Positions 36,309 through 36,334 of a stretch of 64,000 nucleotides of DNA are shown here, one piece after another; within the stretch, counting starts at the first letter, position 1, and each line of letters begins with the position of its first letter. Source of the DNA: Candidatus Poribacteria bacterium (GTDB taxonomy: Bacteria > Poribacteria > WGA-4E > WGA-3G); the NCBI GenBank assembly GCA_022827885.1, contig JAJEIP010000007.1:62001-126000 (forward strand). Reading direction: 5' to 3'. The notes under the pieces were generated by a model, which was given only the letters and a program-made list of their open reading frames with translations, was not told the DNA's origin and did not search any database. Position numbers and translations under genes: made by a program.

Positions 36309-36334
36309 GAACCGCAAGGTAAAATTAAAAAATG
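36309..36334 (+). promoter_or_regulatory. CCGCAAGG boundary/leader element ending at start codon
   Basis: cgaACCGCAAGGTAAAATTAAAAAATG. Confidence 0.6.

What the first reader, a model, noticed from the sequence alone, without database searches (positions are those of the whole stretch)
36309..36334. Recurrent TTTAACCGCAAGGWAMAATTAAAAATG element at the starts of unrelated genes
Near-identical sequence ends at or near the start codon of: sugar isomerase (2581-2608, minus), homocysteine MT (35174-35195), DUF402 (36309-36334), PhyH (54957-54981), ADH (49854-49877, minus, CCACAAGGAAAAATAAAAATG), plus partial forms at GNAT (8438, AAGGTATAATTAAAGAATG) and DUF6785 (42174-42202, minus). These genes share no function. 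Spacing from AAGG to ATG is longer than a usual Shine-Dalgarno. It could be a conserved translation-initiation leader, an RNA regulatory element, or a mobile gene-boundary sequence.
Basis: seen in the sequence. Interest (0 to 1): 0.82.

Follow-up and report, generated by a model that had tools for sequence, protein, structure and literature searches.

The report
Mobile repeat supplying gene starts/stops
In a sponge-symbiont bacterium (Candidatus Poribacteria), the recurring sequence at gene starts is the tail of a short mobile DNA repeat that has landed at the edges of several percent of the genes and now appears to supply their ribosome-binding site, their first amino acids or their stop codon.

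Summary
The motif is real and far commoner than one window shows. CCGCAAGGWAHAATTAAA occurs 234 times in the 5.13-Mb genome (reversed control 0) and is essentially confined to one Poribacteria genus, where copy number runs from 0 to over 300 per genome. It is the 3' end of a ~90-125 nt repeat with a covarying 5' hairpin, sometimes in tandem or as inverted ~200-nt composites. In 1.24 Mb sampled, 58 of 776 long ATG genes (7.5%) carry CGCAAGG within 40 nt upstream (permuted words: mean 1.1, maximum 9). ATG lies 11-12 nt after AAGG in 58 of 73 start-proximal cases, inside this genome's native Shine-Dalgarno window. On the other strand the same tail gives TTT-TAA, the stop codon of 16 of 18 abutting convergent genes; in other genes the element is read in frame as a new N-terminus (...LTEPQGKIK...). 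Loci compared between 92-96% identical genomes show the element joined within 0-2 nt of a start codon or replacing gene ends. I read it as a selfish, MITE/REP/RPE-like palindromic element whose tail is tolerated because it works as a gene boundary. No mobilising enzyme was found, and targeted insertion versus selection is unresolved.

The parts
2581..2610 (-). 5'-truncated type II copy: TTTAACCGCAAGGAAAAATTAAAAA + ATG of the AP_endonuc_2/sugar isomerase gene (1741-2583)
8439..8457 (+). Reduced copy: AAGGTATAATTAAAGA + ATG of the GNAT gene; full element present at this site in G008
9580..9600 (-). Reduced copy on the stop side of the + strand gene 9059-9586 (tail supplies TTT TAA); longer tandem form in G008
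34983..35195 (+). Inverted composite (~213 nt) between gene 32963-34978 and homocysteine S-methyltransferase: left tail TTTTTAATTGTTCGCAAGG, right end type II CCGCAAGG 35176-35183 + tail joined inside codon 6 of the gene
36238..36331 (+). Full type I element: hairpin, CCGCAAGG 36312-36319, tail; DUF402 ATG at 36332
42176..42302 (-). Composite at DUF6785: sister-B-like tail (42285-42302, pointing the other way) plus type I element; gene starts at GTG 42221 inside the element and reads MKQSTHLTEPQGIIKNEN...
49854..49880 (-). Diverged type III copy CTTATCCACAAGGAAAAATAAAA + ATG (49856-49854) of the ADH gene
51385..51457 (+). Type III element on the stop side: its tail gives the TAA (51453-51455, minus strand) of gene 51453-51899
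54935..54981 (+). Type II element, CCGCAAGG 54960-54967, ATG of PhyH at 54979
57790..57857 (+). Diverged type III element on the stop side: TGA at 57855-57857 (minus strand) for gene 57855-58877
33078..33084 (+). Unoccupied site (TGGTAG|GATG); G008 has a 150-nt element here ending 1 nt before ATG
36870..36908 (+). Unoccupied site with native leader GGGGGATAGAGAG before ATG 36908 (also native-like in distant G022); element present in G017, G010, G026, G030 and reduced in G008
44208..44278 (-). Unoccupied site: overlapping genes (ATAATG). In G017 these ~70 nt are replaced by a ~180-nt composite that gives the upstream gene a new stop and the downstream gene a new ATG

Best explanation
The motif is the 3' end of a dispersed palindromic mobile repeat that expanded in one Poribacteria clade. 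Shown by sequence: anatomy, copy number, placement at gene ends, and presence/absence between close relatives. Inferred: the repeat spreads by an unidentified machinery and is kept where it lands on a gene boundary because its tail (CCGCAAGG-WAHAATTAAAA) works as one. On the top strand AAGG pairs with the anti-Shine-Dalgarno and the A-rich tail sets the distance to an adjoining ATG. On the bottom strand the tail reads TTT-TAA and terminates a convergent gene. Type I copies have an open frame, so a gene cut by the insertion can also start inside the element (GTG or ATG) and carry an element-encoded N-terminus (...LTEPQGKIK...). Old copies can shrink to the part still needed, AAGG plus tail.
For: 234 exact copies against 0 for the reversed pattern; confined to one genus with very uneven copy number. 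7.5% of long ATG genes have CGCAAGG within 40 nt upstream against 0.14% for permuted words. 58 of 73 start-proximal cases have ATG 11-12 nt after AAGG, inside the native AAGG window; canonical 16S 3' end. 16 of 18 abutting convergent genes stop at the element's own stop codon. Occupied/unoccupied pairs in 92-96% identical genomes. Homocysteine MT: 15 element-free orthologues, most starting M-S-E-N-P-I-V-K; 16 type I carriers read ...LTEPQGKIK, 15 of them with an in-frame GTG or ATG in the element. Thirteen reduced tail+ATG sites keep exactly AAGG. Hairpin arms vary with complementary changes.
Against: No expression or protein data. No mobilising enzyme, no target-site duplication, and some events delete target sequence. 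Fused copies do not keep an in-frame start significantly more often than unfused ones (p = 0.14). Direction of change is secure only where outgroups agree (window 44208-44278). Gene frames were assigned by coding score, a heuristic.
Confidence: 0.78

Rival explanations
1. Conserved RNA regulator: a structured 5' leader (riboswitch-like or protein-binding) controlling a regulon.
For: Covarying hairpin; strict CCGCAAGG; placement in leaders.
Against: No Rfam match; gene functions unrelated; copies at stop codons in the opposite sense and at least one in frame inside an ORF; types differ at one locus between close relatives; a lower stem is only weakly supported in type I and not in types II/III.
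Confidence: 0.05
2. Mobile promoter: WAHAAT is a -10 box and drives leaderless transcripts starting at the ATG.
For: WAHAAT resembles TATAAT and lies at about -12 to -7 from the ATG.
Against: No conserved TTGACA-like word 17 nt upstream in the column profile. Native genes show SD peaks and no TANNNT peak at -12. AAGG is kept in reduced copies.
Confidence: 0.08
3. Targeted insertion: the element is integrated preferentially at start or stop codons by its machinery, rather than filtered by selection.
For: Very tight placement (ATG at +11/+12), and few copies further upstream with the native SD left in place.
Against: No shared target sequence at right junctions (GATG, ATGC, ATGA, TGTG, TTAAA); homocysteine MT and window-44208 events lie inside codons; internal and stop-side copies exist.
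Confidence: 0.2
4. Ordinary lineage-wide extended Shine-Dalgarno arising by convergent point mutation, not a repeat.
For: AAGG and A-rich spacers are common at native starts.
Against: 7.5% of genes, not most; ~80 nt of conserved structure upstream; presence/absence between 95% identical genomes; absent from sister genera.
Confidence: 0.01

Closest known systems
Rickettsia palindromic elements (RPEs)
   Same: About 100-150-nt palindromic repeats, high copy, inserted in unrelated genes and read in frame with a conserved peptide (as reviewed in PMC10969869).
   Different: RPE fusions are described as insertions into ORFs. Here the element sits mainly at gene ends, and also supplies a non-coding SD or a stop codon; no CGTC tag was seen (RPEs carry one, PMC3733652).
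REP/BIME elements of the GTAG superfamily and their RAYT transposases
   Same: Imperfect hairpin, often with GTAG at its foot; inverted pairs and tandem arrays; lineage-specific amplification.
   Different: Longer, with a conserved non-hairpin tail. Lies at start codons, whereas REPs are predominantly downstream of coding regions (PMC3733652). GTAG only in about half of the scored copies; no RAYT found flanked by it.
MITEs (e.g. Correia, ERIC, BOX, RUP types)
   Same: Short non-autonomous repeats with related inverted ends (TTTTAAYT...ARTTAAAA) in composites.
   Different: Inverted ends in only 17% of copies; no target-site duplication; no parent insertion sequence found.
Shine-Dalgarno translation initiation signal
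   Same: AAGG complementary to the 16S end, at a spacing the host uses.
   Different: Delivered by a mobile repeat rather than evolved in place.

Membership tests
REP (GTAG superfamily) | Short imperfect hairpin in >100 copies per genome | tested here: met
   234 exact 3' ends in G000; complementary arm variants
REP (GTAG superfamily) | Conserved GTAG at the foot of the hairpin | tested here: not met
   GTAG in 28 of 61 scored hairpins, others GCAG, CAAG, AAAG
REP (GTAG superfamily) | RAYT gene flanked by the same repeat | tested here: not met
   Four Y1 genes in G000, none flanked by this element; Y1 number does not follow copy number across the genus. Flanks in other genomes not inspected.
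MITE | Terminal inverted repeats | tested here: inconclusive
   Inverted tail 70-320 nt upstream in 25 of 148 ends, random 3.2%
MITE | Target-site duplication | tested here: not met
   None in the compared sites; some lose target DNA
Rickettsia palindromic element | Element read in frame within unrelated proteins with a conserved peptide | tested here: met
   LTEPQGKIK in homocysteine MT, LTEPQGIIK in DUF6785, PTEPQGKIK inside a kinase-like gene; translation not shown experimentally
Rickettsia palindromic element | Sequence relationship to a known RPE family | not tested
   No RPE sequences were compared
Shine-Dalgarno signal | Anti-SD complement at the spacing the host uses | tested here: met
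   AAGG starts at -15/-16; native AAGG counts 22/24 there against about 3 background; 16S ends GGATCACCTCCTT
Riboswitch or other Rfam RNA | Match to a curated family | tested here: not met
   No match in the window; only chance-level match in four loci

The most novel reading that the evidence does not exclude
The element does not merely survive at gene boundaries but inserts there preferentially: an unidentified machinery (possibly acting on an RNA copy or transcribed DNA, given variable 5' truncation behind a fixed A-rich 3' end) places its 3' end at start and stop codons. That would be a bacterial short retroposon-like element that rewrites translation start and stop sites.
Probability: 0.12. 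Interest if true: 0.88.

Novelty: new variant of a known kind. Interest (0 to 1): 0.64.

Why it matters
Bacterial small repeats are usually seen as intergenic passengers. Here one family appears to have taken over the start signal of about 7% of the genes sampled, and the stop signal of others, replacing native ribosome-binding sites and changing protein ends, with occupied and unoccupied alleles in closely related genomes. It gives a natural comparison for how start sites, N-termini and C-termini are gained, explains odd gene starts in Poribacteria annotation, and raises a testable question: is insertion targeted to start codons or filtered by selection?

Tried and rejected
AUU as start codon: several genes continue the frame of ATT-AAA in the tail with no ATG after it, so I first suspected AUU initiation. 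Rejected as the general explanation, because most have an in-frame GTG or ATG further up inside the element; it remains possible for a few (e.g. the window's homocysteine MT copy). Leaderless promoter: no matching signal in native genes. Lower stem: RNAalifold kept only the 5' hairpin and the CC-GCAA-GG mini-stem; arm shuffling gave weak support for type I (39 of 5000) and none for types II and III. Autonomous parent: no multi-copy ORF between inverted ends in 2.3 Mb. Y1 transposase copy number does not track element number. Fused-frame enrichment: not significant, p = 0.14. Literature searches found no description of this repeat in Poribacteria in the open-access library. A DUF6785 homologue search added nothing for or against.

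Full report
WHAT WAS CHECKED. CCGCAAGG occurs 11 times in the window against 2.1 expected, and no shuffle reached 11. In the whole genome of the window (G000, 5.13 Mb; its genus-mates are recorded as Candidatus Poribacteria, sponge symbionts) the pattern CCGCAAGGWAHAATTAAA occurs 234 times without mismatch and its reversal never. Among 60 genomes searched, nearly all in the genus have it, in numbers from 0 to over 300; of 24 outside the genus one has a single copy. The copy-rich genomes (G008, G010, G013, G017, G026, G030, G034) are the ones closest to G000 over one compared region (about 84-94% identity), against 76-84% for the poor ones. This is the pattern of a repeat that expanded in one lineage.

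ANATOMY. I took 1.24 Mb of G000 in stretches (window included) and found 173 sites with up to three mismatches, against 6 for the reversed pattern, all of those with three mismatches. Behind the motif lies a longer repeat: a hairpin of the form AGCCCG...GGGC or AGCCTGC...GCAGGC, then GGAT, a middle part, then CCGCAAGG-WAHAATTAAAA. The hairpin arms come in about eight versions, mostly complementary, so the fold is conserved while the letters change. Three end types exist (about 68 type I ...CTGACCGAA, 45 type II ...GTTTAA or ...GTTTCT, 13 type III ...ACTTAT). The 5' side is variable or missing while the 3' tail is fixed; tandem copies of 21 nt, ~60 nt and full length occur. In 25 of 148 cases an inverted tail TTTTAAYT lies 70-320 nt upstream, giving composites typically around 200 nt (random windows 3.2%). 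A sister repeat, B, shares the hairpin and the AATTAAAA tail.

WHERE IT SITS. Of 776 long ORFs (at least 200 codons from ATG), 58 (7.5%) carry CGCAAGG within 40 nt upstream; the 209 other permutations of that word average 1.09 and reach 9 at most; inside ORFs the word is at background. I classified 148 right ends by coding score of the downstream sequence. In 73 a start codon lies 6-22 nt after AAGG: 48 are ATG at exactly 12 nt and 10 at 11 nt. In 17 the start codon in frame lies within or upstream of the element. Six are inside ORFs open for at least 300 nt upstream; at least one is a full in-frame insertion (C22, kinase-like), while a few others are weak motif matches that may be chance. In 23 the neighbouring gene is on the other strand; 18 of these abut the tail, and in 16 of the 18 the stop codon is the element's own. 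The classification is heuristic, but the spikes at 11-12 nt and at one stop position do not depend on fine tuning.

WHAT THE TAIL DOES. In 727 genes without the element, AAGG peaks 13-14 nt before ATG and is still frequent at 15 and 16, where the element puts it; AGGA and GGAG show a matching peak; TANNNT shows none at -12. The 16S gene ends in the usual GGATCACCTCCTT. So the element's AAGG is an acceptable Shine-Dalgarno here and the spacing is not odd. Reduced copies also point this way: 13 tail+ATG sites have lost the C before AAGG but kept AAGG exactly. That the AAGG acts as an SD is inference; no expression data exist. Rfam has nothing like the repeat.

EVIDENCE OF MOVEMENT. G008 and G017 are 92-96% identical to G000 over the compared regions. 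(a) Window 33081: G000 reads TGGTAG|GATGAAAAAAA; G008 has 150 nt in between, ending ...AATTAAAAA|GATG. (b) Window 44208-44278: G000 and G008 have two genes overlapping at ATAATG, and G026 keeps the native N-terminal codons; G017 has lost ~70 nt and gained a ~180-nt composite. The upstream gene now ends at a TGA inside the element and the downstream gene has lost 13 codons and starts at an ATG formed by the tail's A and the TG of a TTG codon. (c) C132 66359: 35 nt up to the ATG replaced by a composite of ~200 nt in G017. (d) C33 84571: native GAAGAGGAAAA|ATG in G000 and G008; in G017 the element joins directly to the ATG. (e) Stop side: native CCG GAA TAG in G008 becomes CCC GAT TTT TAA in G017. 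Polarity rests on outgroup agreement for (b) and is only likely for the others. The same start site can carry type I in one genome and type II in another (DUF402), and the DegT-like gene next door has its native leader in G000, also seen in the distant G022, but an element in G017, G010, G026 and G030. Sites are therefore hot spots that are refilled or converted.

ELEMENT-ENCODED N-TERMINI. Element-free homocysteine MT genes mostly start like ATG AGC GAA AAC CCA ATA GTT AAA AAC TTT (MSENPIVKNF). Element carriers read ...CTC ACC GAA CCG CAA GGT AAA ATT AAA AAC TTT (LTEPQGKIKNF), so the element joins inside codon 6 and the native start is gone. Of 16 carriers with a type I element, 15 have an in-frame GTG (27 codons before the reference position) or ATG inside the element; one (L154) has none. 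GTG at that place is uncommon among type I copies elsewhere (3 of the 32 aligned). In the window itself the copy is type II, which breaks this frame and leaves only TTG 35209. DUF6785 in the window uses the same mode, GTG 42221. A general test that fused copies keep an in-frame start more often than unfused ones was not significant (p = 0.14), so this mode rests on individual loci.

WHAT MOVES IT. Unknown. The four Y1 transposase genes of G000 show no copies of this element in their flanks; across the genus Y1 numbers do not follow element numbers; no multi-copy gene lies between inverted ends. There is no target-site duplication, and target sequence is lost in some events. Fixed 3' end, variable 5' end and an A-rich tail would suit a retroposon-like route, but also deletion decay; I cannot separate them.

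COMPARISON. It works most like Rickettsia palindromic elements (in-frame reading) and like MITEs or REPs (dispersed palindromes), but it fails strict REP membership (GTAG not conserved, no cognate RAYT found) and lacks the MITE target duplication. The review PMC10969869 describes RPE in-frame fusions; its text contains neither 'start codon' nor 'ribosome'. I file it as a new variant of a known kind.

LIMITS. Metagenome-assembled genomes; 24% of G000 sampled for gene statistics; copies selected on GCAAGG, so invariance of those letters is by construction; homologous loci share ancestry, so counts across genomes are not independent.

Noticed in passing
window 42285-42302 and 46514-46570; G000 C33:168721, C8:58196, C64:125093: Sister repeat 'B' (...GAGAGCGGCCCAG[A]GG[A/C]CCATAAATTAAAA) shares the AATTAAAA tail and often abuts ATG too; the BatA/VWA gene 44248-46518 starts at TTG right after a B tail, with CAGGAGG upstream.
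   Followed up: partly
L122-L124 (G000 C137, C68, C144): Y1/RAYT-type transposase genes; L123 is flanked by GTAGGAGGGCTTTGTAAGCCCGA palindromes and L122 by GGTGCGGTTACAAACCGCACC palindromes, i.e. other REP families unrelated to this element.
   Followed up: partly
many copies, e.g. L013, L005, window 51385-51440: Two further short sequences are inserted in the loop of the 5' hairpin: ATACGCAGAAATACCCAAGCAAAAACAC and AATTATGCCTTAAATGGCATAATTTGTCTTTGCTTTACATT.
   Followed up: no
G000 C22 around 10477 (minus); L025: A diacylglycerol-kinase-like gene carries a whole element in frame in its middle (...DVARNEMEGGSTERCFNVQTSPTEPQGKIKNYFITIATCGYDTE...).
   Followed up: partly
window 38130-38520: Another indel-prone intergenic palindromic repeat (GGTAGGCGAGGTTTCCTAACCTCGCC type), differing in presence between G000, G008 and G017.
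   Followed up: no
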